Part shown: in pieces, positions 33,406-56,913 of the stretch
Numbering within the stretch: the first letter of the stretch is position 1
Layout: each line of letters begins with the position of its first letter
Assembly: GCA_000697665.1 (NCBI GenBank)
Contig: KL197740.1
Span: forward strand, 330,441 to 394,440
Length of the DNA stretch: 64,000 nt
Direction of reading: 5' to 3'
Source: Jaapia argillacea MUCL 33604
Taxonomy: Eukaryota; Basidiomycota; Agaricomycetes; Jaapiales; Jaapiaceae
Position numbers and translations under genes: made by a program
Notes under the pieces: generated by a model
Database searches by the model: none
Told to the model about the DNA's origin: nothing
What the model saw: the letters and a program-made list of their open reading frames with translations, nothing else

Positions 33406-33897
33406 ATTTGGATCCCAGGTTTCTACTCGACCTCCCTTTTAGATCGTGTCCCCCATCTCTTATTCACTCCAACGGAATTATGTCGATCTCTCTCTACTCT
33501 CCACATTCACCGCAAAGTTGTATTATTAACCTACAGTTTACGTAGTCCTGGCTTATGTACTATAGGAGTCAACAAGGATTGTACCAGTACTAGTACTTGA
33601 GGAAAGCTATCGACTCCACACTGCTCGACGACTTTGAGGAGGCTTTTGGGAGGATTGGTGCTGAAGTCAACTTTCCCACCATGTGATTGGGACGCGACAG
33701 TTAAAATGGCCTGAACGGCTTCTATGCGCTGCAGACTCTCTCTTTCTCCTTGTATTTATCTTCTGGTGAGTCATTCTATCCGATAGCTTCATCGACTCAG
33801 TGTCTGATGAATATCTATGTTCTCAGTACAAATATATCTTATAGACGACCATAACGACACTCCCTGAGGACGACACTCCTTCTCTCTCATTATCAAC
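33406..33897. other. Intergenic, promoter of the zinc-finger protein gene
   Basis: About 490 bases between two plus-strand genes; pyrimidine-rich near the right end. No other feature recognised. Confidence 0.45.
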
Positions 33898-36237: not shown

Positions 36238-38294
36238 GAAATGGAGGATTGGTTGTATTTTTTTTTTCGTATTTGTATCAACATGGATTTGTAGCGATTA
36301 GACACATACTGTATCGAATACATATTACCTAGAGACAAGCGTTGTATTATTTGACATTTGTATTCTGAAGTGTCCAGATGACAGGCCATCGGAATCAGAG
36401 TCGCGATCCGGATCGTGGTTCTCTCCAACACAACGTTGATGCCAAAGTCTCCCCATGCACAATTGCAAGTCTTGCGACACTTTGCTCGCTTTCGGCTAGT
36501 CCGTCAACGACTGCAATTTGCGTTCTTCTACTCGTGACTGTTATAGTCGGTTATGCCACCATCCTTGGACTCAATGTGGACTTGTTCTAACTTGCCTCGT
36601 TGACTCGTTGACGTCTACACTGGGCCTAATGCAAGCCAACTGGGATTCGCTCTATTATTCGCTCTGGCTCGCTGAATCTTCAATTAGCTTTGGTCCGATA
36701 GATCGACCTCGGCTGGTCGTTGGCTTCCGGGACATATGCTTACCTTCAACTGTTACCCATGGCACGGGCCAAGAGACCGTTTGGGAGACACCCTACGAGG
36801 TTGTTCGAACCAACCTACCCGGGGTTGATTTCTTCTTCCACAAAACCCCTCTGTGGTCTTGATGTCGTGGCTTCAATACCTATCTGGCGTGTTTCATGTT
36901 CTGTGATCATACCCATGCTAGAGCTCTGTGACCCATCTCCTTGAGGTATGGTGCCTTTTACCCCCGGCATGTTCTGATAACTCGGCGGCAATCCGTTAGT
37001 TTCTCCTTCTCGCTCTTCGAGCGTATTTCTTCGCGCCCTAGAAGACTTGTGGTGGACAGAACTCGGACTAACCTCACGCGGAGCTTCAAGCCTCTGTCTC
37101 GATCATGAATTCTAGGGGTTCTGGTCCGCGAACCTTTGAACTGCGATATGTCCAATTCCAAGACGACAGCGTGGTTGTCCCGAAACCCTAGTGCGTCCCC
37201 TCTTGCAGTTGCCATCACTGATCGTTTTTGGTTATTCGCTGGGACTTGCTAGCGTTACTACCGTCCAGCCCAGAATGCAGACAGTGTGGCCCTACACCAC
37301 AAGCAACCGCATCAAGTCGAACTGCGTCCGTGTTATCATTCGTTGGAAAGATGTTTGAAGGAGCGGAAGAACAGTGCCTCCTTATGGAATAGTGTGGGGA
37401 TGATGACATGGGATACTATCTTCTGTTTCCGGCGCACAGAGAGGCACAGAGCTTATGGACCGCGTTTGGTTTGTGCCCTGGGGTGATGACGCAAACACGT
37501 AGAGTTGCAGAAATTCCGATGAGTGTAAGGTACAAAGTGGAATCGATAAAGATTGACGATGTGAAGCAATCAGCATCCAAGCGCCTTCCTACCCCCTCCT
37601 CCTCATGCCTCTCCAAGTTTTGTTGAAATGGATGCCGAACGGCAACAAGATAGAATTCAAGAACCGCGAGCCATGTGAGCCACGAGGGTACAGGCTGACC
37701 TAAGCAGTGAAATCGTTGCCACAACCAGAAAAAAAGGACCAAACGGAATCTAATTGACCTCCGCATTATCCTGTTGTATTCAAGGCAACCTCCCACAAAA
37801 GTACTTCAAAGTATTAGAGACAGCTTGCAACCGGTGAGTAGAATTATTGTGCAGGGTCTGAATGGAAGGGGATGAAAATGGAGAGTTGTTACTGAATTTA
37901 CACCAAAAGGGAAAGTCGGGCGCCTGCAATCGCTGTGCACGTTTCAAGCCTTTGTTGGTGGGCTGAACTGATCTGTCACTCCGCCGCTCATTCTCCGATT
38001 TCTCTCTTCCTCGCTGTTCTAAACGACGACGACGACAACTGTTGGCCTTCAACATCGGCAGAGATAGCGAGGACGACTACCACGACGAGCCTCTCTGCTG
38101 GCAGTGAAGCGCAGCTGTTTGTTTATTCCCCCGCTTTACATTCTCGGTTGGTTTTGGTTTCGGTTACGGCCATGGAACCAGCGTCTGACCAAACTTTTCT
38201 TCTTTTGTTCCTTTCCTTTACTAGTCCGCCTCCAACAACTCCATCCTCTTCCTCCTGCTCGCTGTCGCCATCGTAGGACGCCCACGTTGTCATC
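36238..38294. other. Long intergenic stretch upstream of KIN4-like kinase
   Basis: About 2 kb, the second-longest gene-free stretch in the window. Several open frames of 60-126 codons on both strands show no motif, splice pattern or repeat. The last 350 bases are CT-rich with a short GAC repeat (38020-38040) and probably form the promoter and 5-prime UTR of the kinase. Long upstream regions are common before regulated kinase genes. Confidence 0.45.
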
Positions 38295-41200
38295 ATGATG
38301 GAGGTATCAACAAGTCTCCAAATCCCGGACTCTGCCATGGCTGGTTCATCTCGACAACCAGGCTACTCACGTCCCGTCTCCGTTTCCGTACATCCATCCT
38401 CCACATCATCACCCCAAGCACCCACACCTGCATCACGCCAGCGAGCTTCCCACCAAGTCGTCTCCACATCACAACAAGAATCCCAAGTCGCTGCTCAGAA
38501 CGAACAACCAGCTTATAGAGATGTCTATGCTCACCCCGCCGCAATAGCTTACGCAGCAGCGCACCCGCGCCGTACTATTCCCAAATTCGGTCCATATTTA
38601 CTACTGCAGACCCTCGGTGAGGGCGAGTTTGGGAAAGTCAAGCTGGGGTTGCATAGTCAATGGGGAGAGGAAGTAGCTGTCAAGTTGATCAGGAGGGGAA
38701 ATATCGATTCGACCGTACGGATGTCGAAGGTTGAGCGGGAAATTGAAGTTTTACGGGTGTGTTTTACCTTTTCCTCTTCATCGTTGCTGCGATCCTGATA
38801 CGTATCTGTCGACGTAATGTAGACCCTGAAACACCCCAACATCGTCCGTCTCTACGATGTGATCGAGACCGATAAATACATCGGTATTATCCTCGAATAC
38901 GCTTCCGGTGGTGAACTCTTCGACCACATCCTCGCCCACCGTTACCTCAAGGAAAAGGACGCCTGCAAACTCTTCTCACAACTCATCTCCGGAGTCTGGT
39001 ATATCCACCAAAAGAAAATCGTCCACCGTGATCTCAAGTTAGAGAACTTGCTCCTCGACCGACATCGCAATGTCATCATCACCGATTTTGGCTTCGCCAA
39101 CAGGTTCGAGCATCGGGCGGACGATTTGATGCAAACCAGTTGTGGGAGTCCTTGTTACGCCGCTCCGGAGTTGGTCATTTCGGAAGGGCTGTACGTGGGA
39201 AGCGCAGTGGATATCTGGTCTTGTGGTGTCATCTTGTATGCCATGCTAGCCGGGTACCTTCCATTCGACGACGACCCCGATAACCCCGATGGCGACAACA
39301 TCAACCTACTTTACAAGTACATCGTCACCACTCCCTTGACCTTCCCCTCGCACATATCACCCGAGGCGAGGGACCTGTTGGGATTGATGTTGGTCGCTGA
39401 CCCGGTGAAGCGAGCGGATCTGAACGCGATCATGAGGCACGAGTGGCTTGCGCCCTATCACCACCTATTCTTGAAGGCCGTAGAGGATTTGGAGAGGGCT
39501 GCTATGGAGCAGCACCAGATGAAGAGGATGGCCTACCAAAGGCAGATGAGGACCGTCGAAGGGGGTGCCGCCGCGAATGGCAAAGGAATGTCGAGAAGTC
39601 AGAGTGCAAGACCTGAGGCGACGCCCGGTGGTGGTTCATCCAGGAGTCGGTCGCATCAGGTCCAACAAATCGAGGAGAGAGGACAGCCGGAGTACTTGTA
39701 TGAGACTTCTGCCGATCAGGCTGTTTACTCCTCGCCACCGCCCCCTTCTGCTGCTGCTACCAGACGAGGATACAATTCCGTCATGGTCTCCCCTACCACT
39801 GCCAATCATCCCGTCATTGATGATGATCCCTTCGCTCCGGTCCACCCGCCGACGACACGGGATTTAGCTCCTCCCCCGACGTTGGCGATCACTGAGCATG
39901 TTGGGAGTGCAGGCCAGATTGTGACGTCGCCTCTTGAAGAGATTGGTGAGAGCCGAAGGGACGAGGTTACGGAGAGGGAGCAGAGGAGGGGAGAACCTGT
40001 TCCTCCTTCCAGTGGCGCCGCTGCCGCTTCCGCCGCGAGGAGCTCACCGGAGAGTCAGAGGAAGAAGGGCGGTTTCAGGCACACCATCCAGGTGGAATAT
40101 GGCCAGGATGGTCAGGATCAATCCCAGTCAAGGCAGGGCGTGCCCGCTACGAATGGGATATCACCAAACGTCACCAAATCCTCCACTTCACCGGAACGCT
40201 CTAGGTCTTCCAGGAAACCTCCCGTTAATCCCGAGGCGGAGAAGAAGCCTCTTCCTGCCGTCCCTCCTATCTCGGATGTCGTTACTTCATCTTCTGCTCG
40301 CCAAGGATTGGATACGCTCGGACCCGCTTCTGGTGCAGACCTCAGCCGTATGCACAATGGGACGGGTGGATCTGGTTCATCGAAGCAGAGTGGTCATCGC
40401 AAGGGTCTTTCTGTTGATAAGTTGACGATCGGCAAGATATTCAACATGGGACCGGACTCGTCTGGTGCTGGGACAACACACGTCAATGGCTCTTCGTCGC
40501 GCGTCCCTTCGGAGAGGTCGACTGATGGAGACCAGCAACATTCGCGCAATGGAACCTTCAAGTCGTACATGGGTATCAACAAGCGCCCCTCGACGTTACA
40601 AACCACTTCGCCTACCTCCGATGCTGAGGCGAACGGCAAGCAGCAATCCTCCTCGTCGACCTTGTTGAGTCCTTCCACAGACCCTTCAGCCAAGAAGAGC
40701 AGGAGGAATACGTTGACTGTCATGGTCGAGCCTATTAGCCGGACTATCAAGAACAGAACTAGAGGTCGGGTTGTTACCACGGACACGCCGTCCAAGGATT
40801 TGGCTGATATGGAGAAGACACCTTCCTCAGCTATGCCGCCTTCTGGAATATCACATGGTGAGACGGAGGCACAAGTTACAGAGAAATCAACCTTGCCTCC
40901 ACCGACACCTTCCTTTGGAAATGTCTCGAATACAGATATTGGCAGTATTGGACTGGGAATGCCCGCTTCGACAAGTAAGGCGAGGAAAGTTATGCAGTGG
41001 TTTAGGTCGAAGAGTAAGGGGAGGGAGTCACTTAATGGGACATATGAGAGCGACTCTGGGTTGCTTGGGCCTTCTGCAAACCAGATGGGAGAAGCTACAC
41101 CCAGTCGGGGAGCATTGCCGTCGTATAGATCTCGCGCTGGCGCGGCGTCTTCATCAAGTACTATCAATGCTGCTTCGCCTGCCGTCCAAGTGTACGTCAC

Positions 41201-41958
41201 GACACCCAACGCCAACCGTGCCCCTATTCATCCACAGCGTACCGCCTCCGCCGACACTTCCTACGGACTTGCTGAACGAGTTAGGTCCGTCGTCGCCAGT
41301 ACACCCAATCCAAAGGGTTTGTTGCGTGTGCATCACGGCGCTGTCGACCAGACTACTATAACTACTCGTGCACCACCCGAGGTTATGAAGCATGTGAAAG
41401 ATATCTTGGAGAATATGGGTGTGGAGATACAGATTGAGAGTGATTATAAGTATCGGTGTATTAGACATAAGAGGAAGAAGAGTACAGCTGGGCTTGGGGG
41501 AAATGGGGGCTCGGGCAGTTTGGCTGCATTCAATGTTCATGGCACTGCTGCGTCCAATGGGGTGTGTACTCGTCTTCGTTCTCCGCTTGCCACTACTAAC
41601 GAGTTCGAGTTAGGTTGATAAACGTGGATTACCTATCCCATCTCCTTCAACCTTCAGTGGAGGGGGTATGCTGCGTGGTCTCCTCATGCGCAGACAGTCA
41701 TCCCAAGTCTCTTCTATTGGTCAACAATCGTTGGAATCGGATAGTGCTCTCGATACTTCGATCTCTCCCGAGCCAATTACCCCCAACCCCCTTGAAGCTG
41801 TCTACGGTGACCGTACTCAGGATGTTGGAGATGAAGTCCGATTTTCCGTGGAGCTCACTCGGCTAGACCGGTTGAATGATACATATAGTTTGGACATCCG
41901 TAGGTTGAAAGGTAACCTAAGAAGTTATAAGTTTTTGTACGACACGCTGAGAGAGTGA
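38295..41958 (+). CDS. KIN4: KIN4-like CAMK-family protein kinase with C-terminal KA1 domain
   Basis: Three exons give about 1180 residues. After a disordered N-terminus the kinase domain starts FGPYLLLQTLGEGEFGKVKL, with VAVKLIRRG (Lys), IVHRDLKLENLLLD, TDFGFANRF, SCGSPCYAAPELV and DIWSCGVILYAMLAGYLPFD; all catalytic residues are present. The insert DNPDGDNINLLYKYIVTTPL is typical of fungal KIN4/KIN1 kinases. About 600 Ser/Pro-rich residues follow. The C-terminal end (DILENMGVEIQIESDYKYRC, then VRFSVELTRLDRLNDTYSLD, YKFLYDTLRE) is a KA1 membrane-binding domain split by an intron at about 41567-41616 that contains ACTAAC. KIN4 relatives act in the spindle-position checkpoint or in polarity at the cortex; which applies here is unknown. 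The last third is duplicated immediately downstream. Confidence 0.88.
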
Positions 41959-42391
41959 GTGTCATCCATTTGTTCTGAAATTTACTCTTCATCTGACAAC
42001 CCAACCCTCCAGTCGTGCCGATCTCCAGCGATAGATTTTACCGTCCCGTCCATCCATTTCAATTTCTCGCAATCGTTGATCGTTCTACTTGCGGCGCATC
42101 GGAGCTTTCTATCCACATACCCTAATACCTTCCCCCATTCTTGGCGTCAATGGTCCTAATATTCCGCTTCCTCTGGTCCATAAATCAACCGCGGTATTGA
42201 ATGAAATTCCATCTGCCTATCTTTCCTCGTCACTGTTCCATCACCACATTCGCCGTGTTCCACTATTTTTGCAGTGTGCAACGCTCTCTGCTCTCGATCG
42301 TCCTATATACACTCTCCTTTCTCTTTGTCCATTGTTTGCATACGCAATTGTCCCCCATCTCAGGTCGCTCATATGTATATCCTCTATTTGA
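40806..42391 (+). repeat. Tandem duplication, unit 1 (kinase tail and 3-prime flank)
   Basis: The segment from GATATGGAGAAG in the last third of the kinase gene, through its stop and about 430 bases of downstream DNA, has a diverged second copy starting at 42831. The similarity is seen in coding sequence, in the intron before VDK, and in the downstream flank (for example CCATTTGTTCTGAAA and CAGGTCGCTCATA). Unit ends are approximate. Confidence 0.75.
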
Positions 42392-42830
42392 ATGGTTCAA
42401 TGACACTATCGTGCTGTAGTAGGAAGTACGCAATTATGCTAGGACTTGCCGGTGCAAGTTGACCTCCATGACGTGGGTGTCGTGAACAACTTCGCCTTCA
42501 ACAGGACACAATCTGGCAACATCCTTCAAGCAACTTGTAAGTACTGCACTGTTCTGATGGCTCTCCCCATACCTCTGTCCGGCCTCTCATCAATGGCAGA
42601 TGGATTTACATCGACTTTTCGGCTTGCCACCACATCGATGTGACCCACGCCGTCCTGGTACAGCCTTGGACCACAAAGTCCAACCTAAACCTTCGCGCTC
42701 TGGTCTGGATCCGGACTTGCAACGAGGACAAGATACCACAAGCTCGGAATCCACTGGGGCGATGAAAATGAGCGCTGGAAGTAGGTTGCCGATACTCAGA
42801 GTTCATCCAAGTCTCAAGGTTCCACCTTCT

Positions 42831-44148
42831 GGTATGGAGAGGTAGCCTTCAACTCCACTATGATATCCTCTGGCATTCCCCACACTAAAGCGAACGTTTC
42901 AGAGAAGTCGGGTTCGCAGCCTCCATCGAAATCTTCGTCTGGAAATGTTTTAAAGTCGGGTGGAGAATCGGGCCTGCCTTCGCCGACTTGTAAACTTAAG
43001 GCTTGGAATGTGCTGCGGTGGTTTAGGTCAAAGAGGAAGGAAGTCCATCCCGCTACACCCACCGCTACACTCGCTCGCATCCATTCTCAGCACACCGCTT
43101 CTTCCGACACCTTGTACACAGAAGTTGAAAGCGCTAGGTCACTGGTCGCCTGTACACCCGCCCTTAGGAGTCCGCCGCGCGTCTACAATGGTCCGATCGA
43201 CCACCTTACCGTGACTTATCGTGCACCGCATGAAGTTATGCGGCAAGTCGGCCAAATTTTGGAGAATATGGGTGTGGAGATCCGGGTCGAGGGCAACTAT
43301 AAGTATCGATGCATCAGGTACAAGAGGAAGCGGAGCGCGGCCGGGCTTGGATTGAAGGATGGGAATGGGAATTGGGGCTCGGAAAGTTTGGCCAATGATA
43401 ATATGACTACTGCGTCGAAGGGGGTAAGTTTCTACAGCGCCCATAGTCTCTTTAGCATTCCTGATGCCTCTGAGTTAGGTTGACAAGCCCCTTCCGACCC
43501 TACCCTCTGCCCCCACTTTCAGCATTGGTGGAATGCTGCGCGGTCTCCTCAAGCGCGAGCGACCAATTACTCCCAACCCCGTCGAACCTGTCTACGGTAG
43601 CCCTGAGGAAGACGCTGGAGGCGAAGTTCGGTTCTCTGTGGAGCTCACTCGGATAGCCCGGTTGGAAGATACATATATTTTGAACATCCGTAAATTGAAA
43701 GGTAGCCTCAGGAGTTTTAAGTTTTTGTACGACACGTTGAGAGAGTGAGTGTTATCCATTTGTTCTGAAACCCACTCTCCCATCTAACAGCACATCCTCC
43801 CAGAGCCTTCCAGTCGTGCCGATAGATTTCACCGTCCCGTCGATCCATTTCAGTTTCTCGCGGTAGTTGATCGTTCTACCTGCGACGCACCGGAGCTTTC
43901 TATCAACACACTCTAATACCTTCCCCCCTTCTTGGGGCCAATGGTAATATTCCGCTTCCTCTGCTGCATAAATCAACTGTGGTATTGAGTGAAAATCCTC
44001 TGCCTTCCCTCATTGCTGGACTTCCATTGCATTTCGCGTATCACCCAATTTTCACTGCTTTCCACGTCCTCTCCCGACATGGTCTCCATCCCCTTTGTAT
44101 ACAGTGTCTCCGATGCAGGTCGCTCATACGTATATCATCTATTCCCCC
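42831..44148 (+). repeat. Tandem duplication, unit 2
   Basis: Second copy of the segment at 40806, shorter by about 270 bases, with substitutions and indels throughout, so the duplication is not very recent. It includes the truncated KA1 gene and the matching downstream flank up to the CAGGTCGCTCATACGTATAT block near 44117. Ends are approximate. Confidence 0.75.
42860..43748 (+). CDS. Stand-alone KA1-domain protein, partial tandem copy of the KIN4-like kinase
   Basis: Two exons (42860-43423 and 43479-43748) encode about 277 residues with no kinase domain. The blocks follow the parent kinase: LKAWNVLRWFRSKRK (parent ARKVMQWFRSKSK), ILENMGVEIRVEGNYKYRCI, then across the conserved intron VDKPLPTLPSAPTFSIGGML, VRFSVELTRIARLEDTYILN and FKFLYDTLRE. 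The intron position and phase are the same as in the parent. The ATG at 42860 corresponds to an internal Met of the parent (AMPPSGIS); upstream of it the parental frame meets a stop, so this is the first plausible start. The frame and splice sites are kept, which argues for expression, but it could be a decaying duplicate. A free KA1 domain could compete with the kinase for membrane sites; that is speculation. Confidence 0.6.
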
Positions 44149-44603: not shown

Positions 44604-46948
44604 ATGGAAGTTCAAAGCCTAGCAGCTCGAAGGATGGGTGCGTAAGTTTCGACACCTGTCTACACCGGACTGACACTAATATGCAAGTCCAAGTTCCATC
44701 GCGAGGTACGGAGAGTGCTTGACACTACAAGGACCTGGCTTATTCCACAACTTCAGCACGGATTCTCAGTCGGGTGTACCCTCCACTGCTCTAAACAGGT
44801 CATTTTCTTTCACTTTTGCTGCCAGGCATCTGATAACTTCAATCTATGGAAGTGCCCACCCTCGCCTTTTTGCGCTCATCATCGGAATCAACACGTACAA
44901 GAGAGTTCCCGATCTCCATGGGGCTGTCGCGGACGCAATTGCGATGAAAGATTATCTGGAGAAGGACCTGCAGGTTCCTAGTCACCAGATTTGTATTCTT
45001 TGCAATGAAAATGCATCAAGGTCGGCGATAATACGGGAATTCCAAGCGCTTCAGAACAATCCCCACATTCAGCCAGGAGATCCAGTCTTGATTTTCTTCG
45101 CCGGCCATGGGTGTAAGGTTAAGGCACCACCCGGCTGGGTGGACGGAAATGTCGACGGTGAGGTTGAAGGGATTGTATCGCAGGATTACGATGGAAAAGG
45201 AGTGCACTTCATTCCGGACCGCACCATCGGAGAGTTGATTGAGGGAATAGCCCGAAACAAGGGCGATAATATTGTGAGTGTGCCTTATCGCCGTTCAATT
45301 AATATTTATACGTTTCAATAGACTGTCATCTTTGATTGTTGTCATTCTGGGTCGGGAACCCGGGATCCAGATCGTTTGATTCGCTGTGCAGAGATCGAAG
45401 ATAAAATATCGCTGGATCTCGACCAACGAATATGCGGAACCGACGCTAGAGGTTCAGTGACGCTACCTGAGTTCCGCCACACCGGCCTAAGCTCGCATAT
45501 GCTATTAGCTGCATGCGGTGCGGATGAGACGGCCGGAGAAATCAATCAACGTGGCGTTTTCTCCAAAGCCCTCTTGAAGTTGCTTCAGAGCGTAGGGGTA
45601 GAGAAGCTCACCTACCGGGACGTCTTGACATCTATCGATGCAATGCCGGAGTAGGAAATTCTCTTGAGTAGCTTCTATCCAGTCGACTAATACCTTGATC
45701 CAGCCAAAATCCGCAATGCGAAGGGGTCCACCAGGATCGTCTCCTCTTCCAGGCAAAGATTACCTCTGTCGAGTGTCCCTACTACTTGGTACGCCTCGAA
45801 GACCGCCGCTATGTTATGGCTGCTGGCTCCGTTCACGGAGTCACTAAAGACGCTACATTCGCCGTGTACAAGGACAAAGACTCACTCTTGAAAACCTCCA
45901 TTCTGGGCACTCTGATTGCAGCTGGGGTTGAAGCATTCTCGACAACCATGGTGCTCCCCTTGGATGTAACCCCTTTTGACCTTCCAAGTTCGGCAGTCGC
46001 TGTGCAGATCAAAGCTCTCGAAGGTGACCTTGTTCTTTACGTCCCACGGAAAGACAAAGTCCTCCTCGGATTCAAAGCCGTCGAGAAGCAGATAAAGGAG
46101 ATGAAGGATACTCCTTGGCAAATCATTGTCGTATCAGGGGAAGAGAAAAAGTCCAAAGCGCACCTGGAGATTAAGATCGAGGACGATAAACTAGCTTTCA
46201 TTATCCTGGACGAGAAGACCGCACAATATGGGCTGACTCGCATTCCTTTCCTCGTCTACCCTGTTGTCGACGACGTCCGCCCTATACTGTCTTCTGTGGC
46301 CCGTTACTACTGGCACCTTAACCGACCAAGCCTCAATTCGTGTCTGCTGAACGGTGTCAAAATCGAGTTCAATAGGCTAAAATCTTCAGTCAATAGGTTT
46401 GACAATCCCACTCCTACCTTCCGAGTCCGCTCCCCAGACGGACCGAATCTTTACCGCGATGATGGGGTTATCCAACTCATTGCCGATGGGAAGGACATTT
46501 ATGGTATCACGATTACCAACGATACAGCGGTGAACATGTTTCCCTACGTATTCTTCTTTGACAACAGCGACCTTTCTATTCGTGGGTACCTCGCGCTAAT
46601 ACTTGTTACAATCGTAATAATACCACGCGGTTAGAGTCATTCTACATGCCGCCGACTGCTGGAAAGTACAGGATTGATCCACCTCTCCAGGCGAGGGACT
46701 CGTTGGCCATCGGTTATGGATCTGGAGGTTCCAAACCGTCCACGTATACATTGAGGGATGGACAGGAAGTAGATGTTGGGTATCTGAAGTTCATTTTTAC
46801 CACAGTGCCTGTCGATCTTTCAAAGGTTCCTCAGTGTTCACCTTTCACCCATCACCGCGGACCCGGCGAAGACGACGAAAAAAAGGTGATTGAGGCTTGG
46901 AGTAGCATCCTCATTCCAGTGGTCCAGCATCGGTTTCTGCCCTCTTGA
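44604..46948 (+). CDS. Caspase-domain (C14, metacaspase-like) protein, copy A
   Basis: Exon 1 (MEVQSLAARRMGA) ends at a GTAAGT donor at 44642. Spliced to 44691 or nearby, it continues in frame into the caspase domain: LFALIIGINTYKRVPDLHGA, VADAIAMKDYLEKDLQVPSH, LIFFAGHGCKVKAPPGW (catalytic His), then across an intron TVIFDCCHSGSGTRDPD (catalytic Cys). The p10-like part (GLSSHMLLAACGADETAGEI, KLTYRDVLTSID) is followed by QNPQCEGVHQDRLLFQ and a long C-terminal region ending in SFYMPPTAGKYRIDPPL and DVDVGYLKFIFTTVPVDLS. This layout is that of caspase-like proteins multiplied in Agaricomycetes. About 650 residues, five exons. Expected activity: cysteine peptidase, probably cleaving after basic residues as metacaspases do; the C-terminal domain is of unknown role. 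Neighbour to a TPR-CHAT gene. Confidence 0.85.
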
Positions 46949-49371
46949 GAAATGTTACTCTTACATATTTCTACATTGCTGTATAGTCGACTGAGAAAAA
47001 TAGTAGTCACTGCGTGAAGGACGTGGCTGCTCGATTTCTAAATAGCTGAGACTAGATAAGCTGGACTGGGCTAATCGGAGACCTTACCTCTCCAGCTAAT
47101 CAAAACCCTATTTCCTTTGGTTCAGCTGTGAATGCTCGTGGAGTTTAATGGTCTGATCAGCTATGTTCAGGGTATCTAGTCAGGCTCTGTTATGCCAAGC
47201 AGTCTCAGCTACTCACGGCATCAAGCAACCGAATAATGGGGCGCAAAATTCGGTATTAAAATCATAATATTAAATAATATATATTCTTAGAATCTCGCAT
47301 GTCCCTGTCAATTCGTTTTACAACTGGCTGTACCGTAGTCTCCTTACACTACTGCTTCGACATGGATCCCCAACTCCCCGGAATGTCGCGCATACTTTGA
47401 GAGACTCTTGACCTTCCTACCCGTCCTCCGGCCGGGCTACGAACGTGTGCGGCATCTACACAAGTCCGCGATGATCAGGTTTTAGTCAGATAACGGTGGT
47501 GCGGCTTACCCACTGCAACGAATACTCTGCCTTCACCAAACTTCTTAACTACGGGTATGTTGAAGCTAATCTGAAATCAGGCATCGTAAGCAGTGAAAAA
47601 GAATGACAACGGACCGGTAATGGGTGAGATTGAACACTTCAACTAGCTTGATAGGGAGGCCAGTCAAAAGCCGGGTATGTTGCGATGATTGGAATATAGT
47701 TGACCATGACTGGTCCCACGACCCCCAGCCAATATCCAGACTACGTCCGCCTTCTCTGTCGATCAAATCGAGACTCTGTGTAGGCGGGTGTCAGTTAAGT
47801 AACGGCGGGTGGAGAGCTGTTGTCAGCGACTTAATTTTGAGTTTGCGTTGTAGGTCATACGCATGATCTTCGCCTCTGTTAGGTGGGGATTGATGCCGGA
47901 AAGACAAATGTGCAGAACTTACGGAGCATATATCCAGTCTTCTCAGCAACAACCAAACCTCTTCGACTTCACCATCACGAGGATTGAAACAGCTTCAATC
48001 TCCCTTACGATGCTCTTCCCCGGGATTGTAATTCATACCTCAGATTGTGGCCGGCCTGCATCAGCTAACTTTCTCCCGAGAACCTTCCGACATCTCCTAC
48101 CGGCTACGTCCTAAGGCATCCTCTACGGTTTCCAGCAATGCATATACAGTGAGCACAGACAGCCGCAAAAGGGAGGTCAGCGGCAGAAGCTCAGCGGCAG
48201 AGACGGAAGTGACCGGGTTGGTGGTGGTGGTACTGGTGAAGGTGGCAGAGCTCAGGGTAGAGGGCGTCTTAGAGAGAGAAATCATTCTAAGTCAGCTTGA
48301 CATTACTAGAGAAGCGAATCACAGCCTGAGTAGGGCAGCTAGCAAGGGCTGATCAACGTTGAAGAACGCTGGCAGAAACAAAGTCTGATTAGATAGAATC
48401 GGCCAACCAGATCACGTCTAGTCCTCTCAATGTTCGCACGACCTGCTTCCTGAATCTGATTACCTCAGACCTGCTGAGACCAGATGGACTGATGAGACTT
48501 CGAGCAGAAAGGCCTTTCACGCAGTGAGTTACTGAACGGCAGGTGAGCGAAGGTTAAGGTGGCAGGTAGCCGAAATCGTGGTGGCTGCGAATAAACTTGA
48601 CGTAGCTCAACAATTGAATGGCCTCCCTAGAAGGCGCTGTGAGATGTTAGCGACTTCGACAATGGGAATGCGCTAGAGTTGAGTGGTATTCTTACTAGAA
48701 GACATCAATGCTTCGACCGCCGGGTCGATGCTTACTGCAACAACATTGGTTACATGAACGCAACAGAACAGCAAATAATCAAGGCTACGTAGTGTGTTCC
48801 TTGGTCCTTGTCGCGCACTCCATCATGACGAGCCGATCGAAAAACTTCCTGGAGCTATCAGAGATAGTAGGTGGCCCGACTTCTGTATAACGCGAAAGGC
48901 CGCATACGGGGCAACAGCCCGTTACGACAACCCATTATTACTCCATAAATACCATAAATTTCAGGAAAGGAGCGTATTTACATCGGTCGAGAATACAAGG
49001 TAAGTGGATGTAGAAGGCATATAAAGGGAGGTTCAGCCGTGAGGGGGATTGAGGATGAAGCGGCGCGAGGTGGCAGATCATTATGTGCATACATGCGGCC
49101 GCGGGCGAAGTTGCACTTGGCTGACAGCACGAGTGGAGAATGGGTAAAGAAAGGGACTGCTGTAGACTGCTGTATGTCGAGGAGGGTATTGTGCCATACT
49201 GTACCATGAGAGGGAGATGATACAGGCGGGATAAGGTCACGGAAGCACCCTCAAGTTTCTGAGCTCAGACGTCACAAGAGACATGTCTCATCTTTGTAAT
49301 CGAGGAAAAAATTGGCTGAGAACCTGTAAAGCATACAACGATACAAGACCCACTACTAAAGTAGCGGGAAT
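46949..49371. other. Gene-poor stretch between caspase A and the TPR-CHAT gene
   Basis: About 2.4 kb, the longest gene-free stretch of the window, between two convergent stops. It has an AT-rich patch (47250-47300, TATTAAATAATATATATTC) and scattered short open frames on both strands without recognisable protein. It may contain decayed repeat or gene sequence, but I could not identify any. Confidence 0.45.
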
Positions 49372-52300
49372 TTACAAGCCGTAGTGAACGAACGGCACCC
49401 AGCGCATAAAGGAGGCCCCGCTACCCCTCAACTTCAAGACAGCGGTGTGCAGTGCTCGAGCTGCTTCTGTGGTGTCGGGACAGAGCAGAGACTCGGATTG
49501 TGCAAGATTCGATCTAGAAAAGAGGTGGCCATAGAAAACAGCAGCAACCTCTGGTCCATCGCGATCAAGAATCGGCCTGGACAATAATCAATAATTATCA
49601 GGCTAGTGAAGAAACAGTAGGTTCGATATTACCACTCACCACATAGTCGCAACTACGCCACGGAATCCAGCAAATAACATCGCTGCAGCAAGATGCATAG
49701 ATTCGTCCGGATTTTTCTCATCTCCTGCCGCTGTCTGACAGGCGCTAAGGAAGGCGAGAGCCGCGTCCCGGAGAGGTAGTCGCATAATGTCCGATATCTT
49801 CAACTTCTGGCCTCCCTCGAGGAACAAAGCACTTTCCAGTGGGTCCCCCGCGTTTTGCTGGCCATGACAGGCGAAGTGCACAATTAATGCAGATGGGAGC
49901 TCCTTAAGAACACGATCTGAGGATGCTGGTGCAACTCGGATGAGAGACTCTTTGGGCACGTATCTCTCGATTCTCTGCAACTCTTCCCCAGCCCCGCGAA
50001 GACTTCGAAGGCCTTTCGTCTCCGTTTGAACAACCGCCAGCATTTTAAAAAGGTTAGGGTCTGGTCCAGTGGGAGGAGATTGGCTCTTCAGAAGTGTGCC
50101 GAGTGTTGGTGTATAAGAGGAGACGGCATAATCGAGCAAACATTCGGAGGTTGTATCTTTATTGTACATCCCAGCTGCATGAAGCGGGAGAGAGGTAAAT
50201 GGTCCAGTACAGCACCACCACAAACGGGGCGGGGTGTCAGATTCCTGTAGAACAGGGTCAAGCCGTGCGTTACTTCACTTGGAAGAGGATGTCTTACCTT
50301 CAGGCTCAGCCGCCGGACAACAGGCTCGACTACCGACTCCCATAGTTCTTTCAAGACAAGTCTAAAGATCTCGTCGGAGGATCTTGGGACATCATCAACA
50401 AGAATAGCCCCTCGGTTATCTTGGTCGAATGCTAAGGCTAGTGATGTTGGAGTATCAGCAGCGGACCCATGGGATTGCGGAAGGGTGTCCGATTCGTCGG
50501 TTGGTTTGTTCAATTCAGAATTCATCCCAGCTTGTTCTAAAGCGTTCTTGAGCTGTGCAGCAAGGATTTCAGCTCGTCTGTAAGAGAACAGATGGAGGGG
50601 AATGTGTGTGATGCGTGATGAAGTGATGATTACAGCAGCACATTCCGATGTGTCCCGTGTGGCAATTAACATAACAACTGGGTCATTGACTGCCACTTTC
50701 TGGAGCTTCGCACAGGGCTGCGGGAGCAAGAAGTCCTGAAATCCGTCCAACCCGCGGATCTCATCAAGAACTGCCTGTCGCTCCTCAATACTGCGTCGGC
50801 GAAGTGACAATTGTCCGTCGACCTCTTCTCCTGAGCCCCTGGATAACAGCTCAAACGAACCAAGGTCCAGCGTCCGAGAGACTCGCTCAAGGGTTTGAGC
50901 AAGGTCGCTCCTCACCGCCTTGAGATTGTCCAAGGGAGTTCGGAGATGGAGAGCCTGAGACCAAAAAACTGAACGCCCCTCTTCAAGGAACTCAACCGCC
51001 TTCTCAATCTCACCGGATCGAAGACAAAAGAACGCCGCGTCACTGGCCAATCCAACACTTCGCGACCGCAGCGCGACCAGCTGTGAACGGATATTGGAGC
51101 CGAGCATGGCAATGCGAGGTAACAGGCGAATTGCCGTCTGAAAGGCCTCAACCCCCGAAGTGTGGTTGGATTTGCTCGCCATTTGCGACCAGTGACATGC
51201 ATGGATAAAAAGCTCAAATTCACTAGCTGCTTCATGCGTGGCTGAGGCACGGAAGGCTTTGACGGCCTCCTCCATGTCGGTCATCTCACCAGTCAGCTGA
51301 AACCGCGCGAAGAGTCTCTGTGCCATGTGATTGAGTGAGAGGGCTTGCTGGGGATGGGGTCGGAGGTTAAGGATTTCGCGCTCCAGCTCAACCAACTCCT
51401 CCACGTCTGCTAACTTCCTCCCCTTCTCTAAAAGCGCGCCGAGACTGGATGCGAGGTTGATGAGTGAACTGACTCCATCGGGGTGCTCTGCGGGCAACAA
51501 ATGCAGAGCTTCGCGACTGAGCTTAACTGACTCATCCAAGTCTGCCGTCTCACCCGTCTGCCCAGCTCGTAGCTGGAGATGACCTGCTAGGAGATTGAGG
51601 AGACTGGCTCGACGAAGATGGTTTGTCGAATCTAAAGTGAGGGCTTCACGGTCCAGCTTAACCGCCTCATCCAAATGCGCTATCTCGCTCGTTTCCTCAA
51701 ATAGGCTCCTGTGGATTTCTGCCATATTGAAAAGCGAAGTACCTCGAAGGGGGTGTGGTACTGGTCGCAGACAGAGGGCTTCACTGTGAAACTTGAGGGC
51801 TTCCTCTAAGTCTGCACGCTCCCCCGTCTGTAGAAACCGCAGCCTGAGGTCAACTGCCAAGTCGTTCAGTGCGTAGGATCGAAGAGGATGCGGGGGCGGT
51901 AGCAGATGGAGGACTTTTCGGTTTAGATTGAGGGCCTCCTCCAAGTCGCCCATCTGCCTGGTCTGATCAAAACGTGCCTTGAGGTCTATTGCGAGGTTAT
52001 GAAGGGCGATAGCTCGCTGAGGGTGATCTACCGGTCGCAATCGGACGGCTTCACGGTGTGATTTGATCGCCTCCTCTAAGTCTGTGATTTCGCCCTTCCG
52101 CTCGAAACGTAGTCGGAGGCCGTCTCCAAGGTTATTAAGTGAGCTAGCCCGTTCTGGGTGTGACGGTCGCAATCTGAAGGAGGCACGGTAAAGGTCGAGC
52201 GCTTCATCTAGGTCTTCTCTCCTATCCCAGACCTCAAAACGCATTATCAGACTAGCACCTAGGTTGTTAAGAGAATCAGCTCGACCACTATGTGGTTCTG

Positions 52301-53105
52301 GTCGCAAACGGAGGGCTTCGCGGTCAAAACGAATCGCCTCCTCCAGGTCTGCATGGTCACCCTTCTGTTTATAACGTTCCCTATAACCATAGGCCAAACC
52401 GAAGAGTGTGTTGCTCCGATTAGGATGTGGCTCCGGTCGCGAAACGAGCGCTTCCCTATCGAGCTTGAGTGCCTCATCCAGATCAGCCATGTCACCAAGT
52501 TGCCGAAAGCGTGTCCGGAGGTCGATGGCCAAATTGTTGAGCGAGGTACCACGATCGGGATGCAATGGCGGTCGCAAACCGAGGGCTTCACGGTCCAGTT
52601 CGACCGCTTCTTGAAGGTGGGATAGCGTGGAGGCGCGACGAAAATGTGTTTTTAGAGATATGGCCAGATTGGTGAGCGAGTCTGCTCGTTGGGGGTGTCC
52701 CACCGGCCGCAAAGCCAGCGCTTCGCGGTCAAGTCGGATAGCCTCCTCCAGGTTTCCCAAAACACCTGTATTCCGAAAAGTCGCTGCTCGGGCGTGGAGC
52801 TGGGAAGCTATGGGATCGGGAACTACCTCCTGTTGTGAAATGGCGGCTTGGGGAACTGGCTCGGGCTCTTCATCGATACCTTGCTCTATTAATGGTTCGG
52901 GGTGGTTGGGAGCTGACAGATCGACGCCTCGTCGGATCCATACACGTCGTGCAACGTGACCAATAAAAGCAAAGAAGTTGCGGACCGTCTTGAAGGGGCC
53001 TTTTTTATCTAAAGCCCGTCTTGCTATGGATGTATCCTACATCTTGTGCTCAGTCCTAACCCCTGCCGACAAATACAGTCACGGGACATACTTGACGTTC
53101 ACCAT
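49372..53105 (-). CDS. TPR-CHAT protein (caspase-like CHAT peptidase with repeat array)
   Basis: About 1170 residues, four exons; start MVNVK spliced to DTSIARRALDKKGPFKTVRN. An N-terminal linker is followed by about 11 full and one partial helical repeats of about 45 residues, consensus DLEEAIKLDREALxLRPxPH PxRxxSLNNLA, extended TPR-like units. Then come a helical linker and the CHAT domain: WWCCTGPFTSLPLHAAGMYN, ALIVHFACHGQQNAGDPLES (catalytic His), LAFLSACQTAAGDEKNPDES (catalytic Cys), MLFAGFRGVVATMW and, after the last intron, DGPEVAAVFYGHLF and MRWVPFVHYGL. The CHAT domain therefore looks complete. CHAT domains are clan CD peptidases related to caspases and separase; TPR-CHAT proteins in bacteria are proteases activated by partner complexes. 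Target and trigger here are unknown. It faces caspase gene B head to head and caspase gene A tail to tail. Confidence 0.87.
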
Positions 53106-54738
53106 TACCAATCAAAGTCTTGTTGGATTGATCATTGGTGGTTTCATGGTTTGAATTGAGAGCAGATCCCTAGTGGTGTCGATTCGCGTCAGAGTGCGAA
53201 GGATTGGAATATGAGAAAGACAAACGGGGATCTGGGATTTTTGGTCTGTCATGCTTCTGCGAAAGGTTGAGAGCCACTCGCAGGGAGGAGACCTTGATTT
53301 ATTTGGATGGCGTGACAAGCTTCATCGATGATCGTGACCATGTGCTGGCCTGAATGTTGTGTGGACTTCATTGCGGCCATTTCCGTTCGCCCCCGAGAAA
53401 CTTGTGCATCACGGCGATCGCGTTGTGGGCTTATGGAAGTATCAGATTAAGAAACACGCTCTGTGCACGGGTCAAGAGGTGGCCTTGTCGCAATCGCGTG
53501 GCAACGGGCCATTCGGACACGTTTTATATGCTCTTCGCTCATAGCGCAAGGTCTATTGTATTGACTGGCCCCTTGATGCGCTGACTCTGTAGATCTGTCG
53601 GGCATAGTTACCTGCATGTTGGAAGGGCCGCGCGAACTTGAATACCAGACGACCCTATAAGCAAAATGCTCAGGGTTAGTCCCATGTGGCAAGAGGTCGA
53701 TCCTTCGAGATCCAGAGATAAGTATCGAGGTCAACGCAGGTGCAAAGAGATCCACGGTATCCCTGCCTGGGCGAATCCTCTACATTCCGTCCATATCCAG
53801 AAGTCTGTACGTACAATGTGACATAGTGTGACATCCAAGTGTACCAGGATTCGTCCAATACGAAGCTACTTGGTTCCGTAACTTGGCTGAACGCCCCTCT
53901 GGAAGTGGAACGCCGCAAAAACGAGGCTGCTCATGGCCACATTCAGTACGCAGATTCGTGGCACAGGTCAGCAAAGAGCTTAATCATTAGCTCTATCGAT
54001 CTACAATCCGACACGACTTGATGGCACTTGAAGCTTCAAGTTTGACGCTGAGGAAATGTGGCCAAGAAAGGGCTCCTAGCTTATCAATCTACCTCAAGGC
54101 CGTATGATAAGTCATCCCTGCGACCCAAGGTATCGTTCATAAGCGCTGGTACCTAAGCTATGTTTTTTTATGGCGAAAGATACTGTAGATTTTTAATTTC
54201 GCAATTGCGCGTGTGTCCTCAGTGGTGGGTCTTCCGGTTCTTGATATGTATGTCTTCCAGATCGATTTCCCTGAGGGAACAAGGCTCAATCGATATAGTA
54301 GGCGCGTTAGATTCAGAAGGTGACAACCTGAATGGCTTCAGGCGGCGCTTCCAGCAAGGTTCAAGTTTCGGAACACGCATCTTCTAAGATACACGGCGTG
54401 TGTGGGTCTGAAACTCAACTTCGAACATGGCAACAAGTCGAAATCACCCAACGGCTAGAGCGCTTCGTGAGTACCTCACGGCACAAGCTCTCCAACCTAC
54501 TGTATCAATTGAACGCTGACTCATCAGGTATATCGATCTAGAAGCAAGTTGAACGAAATTGGATGGACCCAAGGAAGTCTACCCAGACATTTTGTAGCTG
54601 GACTCCTTTAAAACCGGTACTGCTCAGGCTGATGGAATACTCACTTCGCCGAACACCCCTCTGGCAATTCAATGACTGATATAACCAATCTTCCTAAACT
54701 CCGCCGGTTCATGAATTGGTTGGCGGATCCTGTTGTTT
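53106..54738. other. Divergent region between TPR-CHAT gene and caspase gene B
   Basis: About 1.6 kb. It should hold the promoter of the TPR-CHAT gene and the promoter and 5-prime exons of caspase B. A possible first coding exon starts at 54332 (MASGGASSKVQVSEHASSKI), with a GTGAGT donor near 54469, but I could not connect it in frame to the caspase domain. Other open frames (53354-53584, 53676-53918) are without recognisable content. Confidence 0.45.
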
Positions 54739-56913
54739 ATGATCATAGACGTCCGACTTACGTCTGTTTGTAGGGGATTTTGGCGACGGAAACCGTTACC
54801 ACCATCCATTCACTTTTTTGCGCTGATCATCGGAATCAACAAGTACAGGTGCGAGGATATATCGAATCTCCGTGGCGCTGTCCCGGACGCGAATGCCATG
54901 AAAGATTACCTGGAGAAGGACCTGCAGGTTCCCAGCCACCAGATTTGTGTTCTTCGCGATGGAAATGCATCAAGGTCGGCGATTATACGGGAATTCCAAG
55001 CGCTTCAGAAGGACTCCCGAATTCGGCCAGGAGATCCAATCCTGATTTTCTATGCCGGCCATGGCTGCAGGGTCAAGGCACCACCCGGCTGGGCGCACGG
55101 AAGTGTCGACGGCAAGGTTGAAGGGATTGTATCTCAGGATTACGATGGAAAAGGAGTGCACTTCATTCCGGACCGCACCATAGGAGAGTTGATTGAGGGA
55201 ATAGCCCGAAACAAGGGCGATAACATTGTGAGTGTGCCTCGTCGCCGTTCAACTAATATTTATACTTTTCGATAGACTGTCATCTTCGATTGTTGTCATT
55301 CTGGGTCGGGAACCCGGGAACCAGATCATTCGATTCGCTGTGCAGAGATTCAATATGAAATACCGGCCAATCTCGACCAACATATATGGGGAACCGATAT
55401 CGATACTAGAGGCTCAGCGACACTACCTGACTTCCGCCACACCGGCCTGAGCTCGCATATACTATTATCTGCGTGCAGTGCAGGCGAATTCGCCAGGGAA
55501 AGGCGTCAGTGCGGACGTTTCACCGCAGCTCTCTTGAAATTACTCCAGACTGTAGGGGTAGCGAAGCTCACCTATCGGGATGTCTTGACACTGATCGACT
55601 CGGATACCATTCCAGAGTAAGAAATAATCTCGAGTATCTTCGACCCAATCACTGAAACCTTGATCCAGCCAAAACCCGCAATGCGAAGGGGTCCACCAGG
55701 ATCGTCTCCTCTTTCAGACAACGGTCCCCACTGTCCAACGTCCCTACTACTTCGTACGCCTCGAAGACTGCCACTACGTCATGGCCGCTGGCTCCGCTCA
55801 GGGAGTCACTAAAGACGCTACATTCGCCGTGTACAAGGACAAAGAATCACTCTTGAAGACCCCTGTTCTGGGCACTTTGATTGCAGATGAGGTTGAAGCA
55901 TTCTCGACAACCATGGCGCTCCCTTTAGATGCAACCCCTTTTGACTTTCCGAGTTCTGCAGTCGCTCTGCAGATCAAAGCGCTCGAAGGGGATCTTGTTC
56001 TTTACGTCCCACCGGAAGATAAAGTCCTCCCTGGGTTTGGAGCCGTCGCGAAGCAAATACAGGAGATGACGGACGCTTCTTGGCCAGTCGTTGTTGTATC
56101 GGCAGAGGAGGAAAAGTACAAAGCACATCTAGAGATCAGGATCGAGGACGACAAACTGGCTTTCATTATCCTTGGCGAGAAGACCACAAAGTACGGGCTG
56201 ACTCACATCCCTTTCCTCGTCCCTATTGTCAACGACATCCGCCCTATATTATCTTCTGTGGCCCATTACTACTGGCACCTTAACAGACCCAGCCTCGAAT
56301 CGTGGCTCCCGGACGATGTCAAAATTGAGTTCAATAGGCTACACTCTCGAGTCGATAGCTTTGGCAATGGCGGTCATTCCACCCGATTCCGTTCCCCCGA
56401 AGGGCCCAATCTCTATCGCGACGGGGCAATTCACCTCGTTGCGAATGGGAAGGACACCTATGGTATCACGATCACCAACGAGAGAGAGGTGAACTTATTC
56501 CCCTACGTATTCTTCTTCGACAACAGCAATTTTTCTATTCGTAGGTGCCTCACGGTGATACTTGCTGTTATTGTACTAATACACTGCGGTTAGAGTCTTT
56601 CTACATGCCACCAACTGCCGGCCGGTTCAGTGTTGACCCACCTCTCCGGGAGAGAGGCTCATTGACCATTGGTCATGGATCTGGAGGTTCCAAACCGTCC
56701 ACATATACATTGAGGGATGGACAGGATGTAGATGTTGGATATCTGAAGTTTTTCTTTACCACAGAGTTCGTCGATCTTTCGAGTATCCCCCAGAAGTCTC
56801 CTTTCTCCGAACACCGTCAGTGTCAACTAGTCGAGGAACAACTCGAGGAGGGGAGTTGGTGTAGCGTCGTCGTTCCGTTGATTCAGCATCGTTTCGAAGT
56901 GCCCTCAATTTGA
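54739..56913 (+). CDS. Caspase-domain (C14, metacaspase-like) protein, copy B
   Basis: Direct-repeat paralogue of the gene at 44604. The stated start is the first in-frame ATG before the domain (MIIDVRLTSVCRGFWRRKPL); one or more 5-prime exons, perhaps from 54332, may be missing. Blocks: HFFALIIGINKYRCEDISNL, LIFYAGHGCRVKAPPGW (catalytic His), TVIFDCCHSGSGTREPD (catalytic Cys), GLSSHILLSACSAGEFARER, QNPQCEGVHQDRLLFQ, a long C-terminal region, and finally SFYMPPTAGRFSVDPPL and DVDVGYLKFFFTTEFVDLS. Intron positions match copy A, and the first part of the caspase domain is about 90 percent identical at nucleotide level by eye. The loop after the Cys is more diverged. Likely a cysteine peptidase; trigger and substrate unknown. 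Confidence 0.83.

What the first reader, a model, noticed from the sequence alone, without database searches (positions are those of the whole stretch)
44604..56913. Caspase - TPR-CHAT - caspase locus: three clan CD peptidase genes in 12 kb
Two caspase-domain genes in direct repeat flank a TPR-CHAT gene in opposite orientation. All three keep His (AGHG or ACHG) and Cys (DCCHSG or SACQTA) motifs. CHAT and caspase domains are related cysteine peptidases, and bacterial TPR-CHAT proteins act with sensors, sometimes by cutting other caspase-like or gasdermin-like proteins. The arrangement suggests a protease cascade in which the CHAT protein senses a signal through its repeats and activates the caspases, perhaps in incompatibility or defence. 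Adjacency is seen; the cascade is inference.
Basis: partly seen in the sequence, partly recalled or inferred. Interest (0 to 1): 0.85.

Follow-up and report, generated by a model that had tools for sequence, protein, structure and literature searches.

The report
Paired TPR-CHAT and caspase protease genes
A fungus-like genome keeps genes for two related protein-cutting enzymes, a repeat-bearing CHAT protease and a caspase, side by side at several separate places, and some bacteria keep the same kinds of gene in tandem, which suggests a two-step protease switch that remains to be tested.

Summary
Two metacaspase-like C14 genes in direct orientation (74% identical protein, dN/dS 0.39) flank a TPR-CHAT gene on the other strand; all three keep their His and Cys motifs. 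The grouping is not chance. I found 9 C14 genes at 8 loci and 51 CHAT places. A CHAT lies within 5 kb of 4 of 8 C14 loci, one of them a decayed remnant (3 of 7 without the window, P about 8e-5; 2 of 7 without the remnant too, P 0.0035). Besides the caspase, TPR-CHAT is the only family that recurs among the ORFs fetched around these loci. Two other pairs are tail to tail, 113 and 179 bp apart. All 5 linked caspases keep the catalytic dyad; 3 of 4 unlinked ones have lost the His. Of the 80 closest bacterial relatives fetched, 21 have a CHAT ORF within 500 bp on the same strand (0.7 expected). Best reading: a TPR-CHAT sensor protease working with a caspase, as in known bacterial protease relays. 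Order of action, substrates and any role in incompatibility or defence are inference. Only one fungal genome could be examined.

The parts
44604..46949 (+). Caspase 1 (C14, metacaspase-like).
45100..45111 (+). Catalytic His motif AGHG of caspase 1
   Evidence: sequence; aligned
45334..45351 (+). Catalytic Cys motif DCCHSG of caspase 1
   Evidence: sequence; aligned
46960..49360 (.). Spacer between caspase 1 and the CHAT gene; about 1,965 of its 2,401 bases match other places in the genome (72-95% identity), and its last ~120 bp match 16 other places in whole or part
49372..53036 (-). TPR-CHAT gene. Exons 53036-50298 (open frame; start codon not fixed), 50244-49640, 49576-49372; TPR array then C-terminal CHAT
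49861..49878 (-). Catalytic His motif HFACHG of the CHAT domain
   Evidence: sequence
49729..49746 (-). Catalytic Cys motif SACQTA of the CHAT domain
   Evidence: sequence
53040..54735 (.). Spacer between the CHAT gene and caspase 2; matched only its own place in the genome
54739..56913 (+). Caspase 2 (C14, metacaspase-like). Exons (54739 or 54811)-55227, 55276-55616, 55669-56540, 56594-56913
55054..55065 (+). Catalytic His motif AGHG of caspase 2
   Evidence: sequence
55288..55305 (+). Catalytic Cys motif DCCHSG of caspase 2
   Evidence: sequence

Best explanation
The locus is one of several copies of a two-protease module: a TPR-CHAT cysteine protease whose repeat array probably serves as sensor or scaffold, and one or two metacaspase-like caspases with a conserved C-terminal beta-rich module. 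Most likely the repeats bind a signal or partner, the CHAT domain is released, and the CHAT protease and the caspase act in one pathway, with the CHAT protein upstream and the caspase as the executing protease; the outcome is probably regulated cell death or growth arrest. Shown: the anatomy, intact catalytic motifs, constraint between the two caspases, recurrent linkage in this genome, tandem same-strand pairing in bacteria. Inferred: joint action, the order CHAT before caspase, the sensing role of the repeats, and the cell-death outcome.
For: Linkage at 4 of 8 C14 loci within 5 kb (window, C5, C3 and a decayed CHAT remnant on C9) against 0.013 per random place. On C3 (2.07 Mb) and C32 (443 kb) the only CHAT place found is the one beside the caspase. 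ORF against ORF over 24 kb of the window and 10 kb at each of the 7 other loci, only caspase and TPR-CHAT recur, apart from two pairs of overlapping-frame shadows of caspase ORFs. The linked CHATs of C32, C3 and C5 sit in three different CHAT clades (bootstrap 99 each; one search agrees) and linked caspases in three caspase lineages, so the linkage is not one recent block duplication. Dyad kept in 5 of 5 linked caspases and 1 of 4 unlinked (Fisher 0.048 by gene, 0.071 by locus). Bacteria: 21 of the 80 best relatives have a CHAT ORF within 500 bp, all 21 on the same strand, 0.66 expected. Caspases 1 and 2 dN/dS 0.39.
Against: One fungal genome only. The C9 CHAT partner is a remnant of about 117 codons with an in-frame stop. 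47 of 51 CHAT places lie more than 5 kb from any caspase, so CHAT proteins do not need one; CHAT counts are lower bounds by the tool's own statement, and more CHATs would weaken the P values. Caspase C61 is intact but unlinked. The bacterial loci are redundant (L071, L073, L075 are 76-81% identical to L074; several Nitrospira). A CHAT like the fungal one occurs in 4 of 396 actinobacterial genomes; it is beside a caspase in 1 of 4, the one that led me there; in the others the nearest C14 is 11.4 kb off, far off, or absent. No expression, binding or cleavage data; caspase 1 lacks a clear start codon.
Confidence: 0.5

Rival explanations
1. Inherited neighbourhood without shared function: an ancestral CHAT-caspase pair was copied around the genome, partners were lost at some copies, and the remaining pairs are leftovers.
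For: The three linked CHATs in the tree fall within one larger group of 20 of 37 (but that node has support 43); caspase 1 and the C5 and C3 caspases share the tail-to-tail orientation to their CHAT; one linked CHAT is already a decayed remnant.
Against: Caspase identities between the linked loci are 27-43%, so linkage has outlasted long divergence in a family that otherwise disperses; bacterial pairs occur with CHAT upstream (9 loci) or downstream (12 loci); caspases without the catalytic His are found only among the unlinked ones.
Confidence: 0.27
2. The two proteases act together but in the other order, or in parallel on a third protein such as a pore former encoded elsewhere: the caspase may cut and release the CHAT protein, or restrain it.
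For: Fungal CHAT proteases activate gasdermins encoded nearby (passages of PMC10197012 and PMC12881547); both enzymes here keep their catalytic motifs; two caspases per CHAT would fit a regulator as well as an executioner.
Against: No gasdermin match by Pfam PF04598 in this genome and no recurrent third family at the 8 loci; PF04598 may miss fungal gasdermins, so this is weak.
Confidence: 0.17
3. Chance grouping of two expanded families.
For: CHAT is a family of 51 places found, with clusters on several contigs.
Against: P about 8e-5 with the window left out, 0.0035 with the remnant also left out; contigs C3 and C32 hold no other CHAT place; bacterial tandem pairs.
Confidence: 0.03

Closest known systems
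SAVED-CHAT protease of type III CRISPR systems (Steens et al. 2024; paper not held; described in passages of PMC11229360 and PMC11417357)
   Same: A CHAT protease that starts a cascade of proteolytic activity. That its target is a caspase (PCaspase) is recalled, not read here.
   Different: Its sensor is a SAVED domain that binds a cyclic oligoadenylate; here TPR repeats, no CRISPR system, and a eukaryote.
Fungal CHAT (TPR-bearing) - gasdermin two-gene clusters (passages of PMC10197012, PMC12881547)
   Same: TPR-CHAT sensor protease encoded beside its effector in a fungus.
   Different: The neighbour here is a caspase; no gasdermin was detected with Pfam PF04598.
Craspase TPR-CHAT (Csx29) (abstracts in the listing)
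   Same: TPR repeats fused to a CHAT protease.
   Different: Csx29 works with Cas7-11. Only the TPR part of the window protein was scanned against NCBIfam, with no Csx29 match; the bacterial L072 and L092 CHATs match that model only weakly (23 and 31 bits, cut-off 300).
Metacaspases / orthocaspases, incl. pseudo-orthocaspases (start of the abstract of PMC6426788 in the listing)
   Same: Catalytic fold and His/Cys motifs; paralogues with His to Tyr, as in pseudo-orthocaspases.
   Different: A conserved C-terminal part of about 390 residues; no long N-terminal prodomain if the nearest ATG is used in the single-exon paralogues C61, C11 and C9_444470.
Canu caspase-nuclease and EACC1/VMAP caspase systems of bacteria (passages of PMC12799240 and PMC7159879)
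   Same: Caspase encoded beside a second component in bacterial conflict systems.
   Different: Partner is a nuclease, an EACC1 protein or an alpha/beta hydrolase; the search for words beginning with CHAT gave 0 in the main text of both papers.

Membership tests
Peptidase C14 (metacaspase-like) | C14 domain above Pfam cut-off | tested here: met
   65.7 and 70.2 bits, cut-off 21.4
Peptidase C14 (metacaspase-like) | His-Cys dyad | tested here: met
   AGHG and DCCHSG in both window copies
Peptidase C14 (metacaspase-like) | Metacaspase fold | tested here: met
   A profile of five fungal caspases, both window copies included, matches yeast, C. glabrata, trypanosome and plant metacaspases; the model of a close bacterial relative (L074, pLDDT 78) matches AtMCA9, AtMCA4 and YCA1. 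The window catalytic domain itself was not modelled.
Type I fungal metacaspase | N-terminal prodomain (recalled criterion) | tested here: inconclusive
   In C61, C11 and C9_444470 an ATG lies within about 10 residues of the domain; starts of the window genes are uncertain
Metacaspase | Arg/Lys cleavage, calcium dependence (recalled criteria) | not testable with these tools
   needs enzyme assays
TPR-CHAT proteins | TPR array followed by CHAT with His and Cys | tested here: met
   TPR_12 90.1 bits; CHAT 102.4 bits; HFACHG and LSACQT
Fungal CHAT-gasdermin cluster | Gasdermin gene next to the protease | tested here: inconclusive
   PF04598 finds none in the genome, no third recurrent family at the loci; fungal gasdermins may escape this model
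SAVED-CHAT cascade | SAVED sensor on the CHAT protein | tested here: not met
   only TPR families reach their cut-off in the 819 residues before the CHAT exon
SAVED-CHAT cascade | CHAT protease starting a proteolytic cascade | not testable with these tools
   adjacency to a caspase is met; cleavage needs experiment
Bacterial tandem CHAT/caspase pair (counted here) | Caspase relative with CHAT ORF within 500 bp on the same strand | tested here: not met
   21 of 80 bacterial loci show it; the window pair is adjacent but on opposite strands and 2.4 kb apart, C5 and C3 are adjacent but tail to tail

The most novel reading that the evidence does not exclude
Fungi of this kind run an initiator-executioner protease relay, a TPR-CHAT initiator acting on metacaspase-like executioners, built from the same parts as bacterial CHAT/caspase tandem genes. 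It would be a counterpart of the animal caspase cascade in which one of the two proteases is a CHAT enzyme, and it would give fungal caspases an upstream activator.
Probability: 0.35. Interest if true: 0.85.

Novelty: new variant of a known kind. Interest (0 to 1): 0.63.

Why it matters
What switches fungal metacaspases on, and what they do in cell death, is an open matter (my own knowledge of the field). A gene neighbour kept at several loci and matched by tandem genes in bacteria names a concrete candidate activator that can be tested with two purified proteins. It would also widen the known partners of fungal CHAT proteases beyond gasdermins.

Tried and rejected
Chance grouping: rejected. 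Shared fast-evolving compartment as the cause: unlikely, since contigs C3 and C32 hold no other CHAT place that the searches found. One recent block duplication: rejected by 27-43% caspase identity between the linked loci and three separate CHAT clades. Transfer of the pair as one unit from an actinobacterium: suggested by the CHAT tree (the 37 fungal CHATs with L072 as sister, but the bacterial CHATs in that tree came only from loci fetched for their caspases), not supported by the wider search (1 of 4 CHATs beside a caspase); where the fungal caspases join the bacterial tree is unresolved. Gasdermin as partner: not found with PF04598, inconclusive. Fold of the C-terminal module: window model poor (pLDDT 62.6); Foldseek best E 0.014 with none at 0.001 or below, FlgT fifth among mixed hits, in line with a weak FlgT_C match in L071 below its cut-off; only suggestive. 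Bacterial catalytic survey: 80 of 80 have His and Cys, but one of the two search patterns contained the Cys motif, so this says little about the Cys.

Papers: no paper in the held library has both 'CHAT domain' and 'Agaricomycetes'; the listings show none, by title and start of abstract, about a fungal CHAT-caspase pair. That is absence from those ten searches only, and most subscription papers are not held.
Full report
Setting. The window is contig C32, 330441-394440, of a 43.7 Mb genome in 95 contigs; the genes studied have introns of 48-63 nt. No relatives of it are held.

Anatomy. Caspase 1 (+, about 44.6-46.95 kb), a TPR-CHAT gene (-, 53.04-49.37 kb) and caspase 2 (+, about 54.7-56.91 kb) lie in that order. 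Both caspases have a C14 domain of about 250 residues with AGHG and DCCHSG, then about 390 residues with no Pfam match. The CHAT gene has at least 1,090 codons: a TPR array, then a CHAT domain with HFACHG and SACQTA. Caspases 1 and 2 share three introns, are 74% identical over 639 codons and evolve under constraint (dN/dS 0.39, dS 0.38, no internal stop). DNA similarity (82.9%) starts at the first strand of the caspase domain and stops before the end of the gene, so the 5' ends are not shared. Of the 2.4 kb between caspase 1 and the CHAT gene, about 1,965 bases match other places in the genome; the spacer before caspase 2 matched only itself. Caspase 1 is tail to tail with the CHAT gene, caspase 2 head to head with it.

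Is the grouping chance? C14 searches with Pfam and with caspase 2 give 9 genes at 8 loci, plus one weak fragment on C61 that I did not count. Three CHAT searches (50, 51 and 66 rows) merge into 51 places, fragments included; the tool calls such counts lower bounds. A CHAT lies within 5 kb of 5 of 9 genes, 4 of 8 loci: the window; C5, tail to tail with 113 bp between frame ends; C3, tail to tail with 179 bp; and C9, where a CHAT remnant of about 117 codons with an in-frame stop lies on the 5' side of the caspase. A random place has a CHAT within 5 kb with probability 0.013; P is 2e-6 for 4 of 8, 8e-5 for 3 of 7 with the window left out, 0.0035 for 2 of 7 with the remnant also left out; at 10 kb the same three are 2e-5, 4e-4 and 0.010. 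ORF-against-ORF comparison over 24 kb of the window and 10 kb at each of the 7 other loci finds no recurrent family other than caspase and TPR-CHAT, apart from shadows of caspase ORFs in other frames.

Shape of the evidence. The CHATs of C32, C3 and C5 sit in three clades with bootstrap 99, each also holding unlinked CHATs (one search agrees). These trees hold 37 of the 51 CHAT places; the C9 remnant is not among them. Linked caspases are spread over the caspase tree. All 5 linked caspases keep the dyad. Of the 4 unlinked, C61 keeps it and three have lost the His (AGRG on C9, AGYG on C11 and C18), with a changed Cys region on C11 above all. With nine genes this is suggestive only (P 0.048 by gene, 0.071 by locus).

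Bacteria. One scan of a collection of 84,980 bacterial and archaeal genomes with two peptide patterns gave 438 matched stretches, 350 confirmed relatives, of which the best 80 loci were kept. 21 of 80 have a CHAT ORF within 500 bp, all 21 on the same strand, 9 upstream and 12 downstream; the density of 9 other CHAT ORFs in 1.09 Mb of flank predicts 0.66. Counting only the 64 loci with at least 1.5 kb on both sides, 20 of 64. The four best are cyanobacteria (L071, L073, L074, L075) with 76-81% identity to L074, so one lineage; others are Nostoc and related cyanobacteria, a Mycobacterium species, Bacteroidales, two planctomycetes, Arenicella, Uabimicrobium, Humibacillus and several Nitrospira (titles). 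L071 and L073 match the first fungal query (C61) over residues 30-677 of 688, so the C-terminal module is shared with them. Against the idea that fungi took the pair as a unit: 4 of 396 actinobacterial genomes have a CHAT like the fungal one (E 1e-25 or better), and only the one that led me there is beside a caspase; of the other three, one has its nearest C14 11.4 kb off, one far off, one has none.

Structure. The L074 caspase model (pLDDT 78) has a metacaspase fold; nearest solved structures are plant metacaspases 9 and 4, a Geobacter protein, yeast YCA1 and MALT1. The window's caspase 2 exon 3 model is poor (62.6) but by eye has a similar order of strands and helices to the L074 C-terminus; a FlgT-like barrel is a weak hint.

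Mechanism. The parts suggest a sensor protease and an executing protease. The order CHAT first rests on the repeats of the CHAT protein and on the bacterial SAVED-CHAT cascade (passages of PMC11229360; that its target is a caspase is recalled). Fungal CHAT proteins activate gasdermins encoded beside them (passages of PMC12881547 and PMC10197012); here the neighbour is a caspase. PF04598 found no gasdermin in the genome, which does not exclude fungal gasdermins.

Verdict. A real, recurrent gene pairing and a plausible two-protease module, not seen for fungi in my searches of the held library, built from known kinds of protein. The cascade itself is untested.

Noticed in passing
G000 C9:444470-445249 (L062), C11:206761-207216 (L064), C18:199284-200027 (L063): Three C14 paralogues with the catalytic His replaced by Arg or Tyr, long open frames kept on C9 and C11, resembling bacterial pseudo-orthocaspases.
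   Followed up: partly
L071-L075, L077, L080, L088, L092, L121, L124, L126-L128, L130-L132, L135, L139, L140, L147: 21 bacterial caspase genes with a CHAT ORF within 500 bp on the same strand; 2 of 3 of the caspases scanned (L071 and L072, not L074) also carry a DUF7379 domain.
   Followed up: partly
window 38277-41615 and 41202-44005: Protein kinase ORFs; stretches at 41202-41563 and 41773-42218 are repeated at 43055-43425 and 43563-44005 (66% and 82%), the second copy in an ORF without a Pfam match.
   Followed up: no
window 46960-49360: Mosaic of dispersed repeats between caspase 1 and the CHAT gene, its last ~120 bp matched at 16 other places; one repeat match lies about 1 kb from a CHAT gene on C34.
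   Followed up: partly
G000 C34, C81, C4, C48, C18: Clusters of CHAT genes far from caspases, some in open frames of 1,499-1,857 codons on C4.
   Followed up: no
window 33868-36234: Long ORF with a weak integrase zinc-binding match below cut-off, like a retroelement.
   Followed up: no
window 7213-8474 and 9917-11176: Diverged direct repeat (about 65% identity), unexamined.
   Followed up: no
G000 C61:22383-22769: Weak caspase fragment 5 kb from the C61 caspase, not counted as a gene.
   Followed up: no
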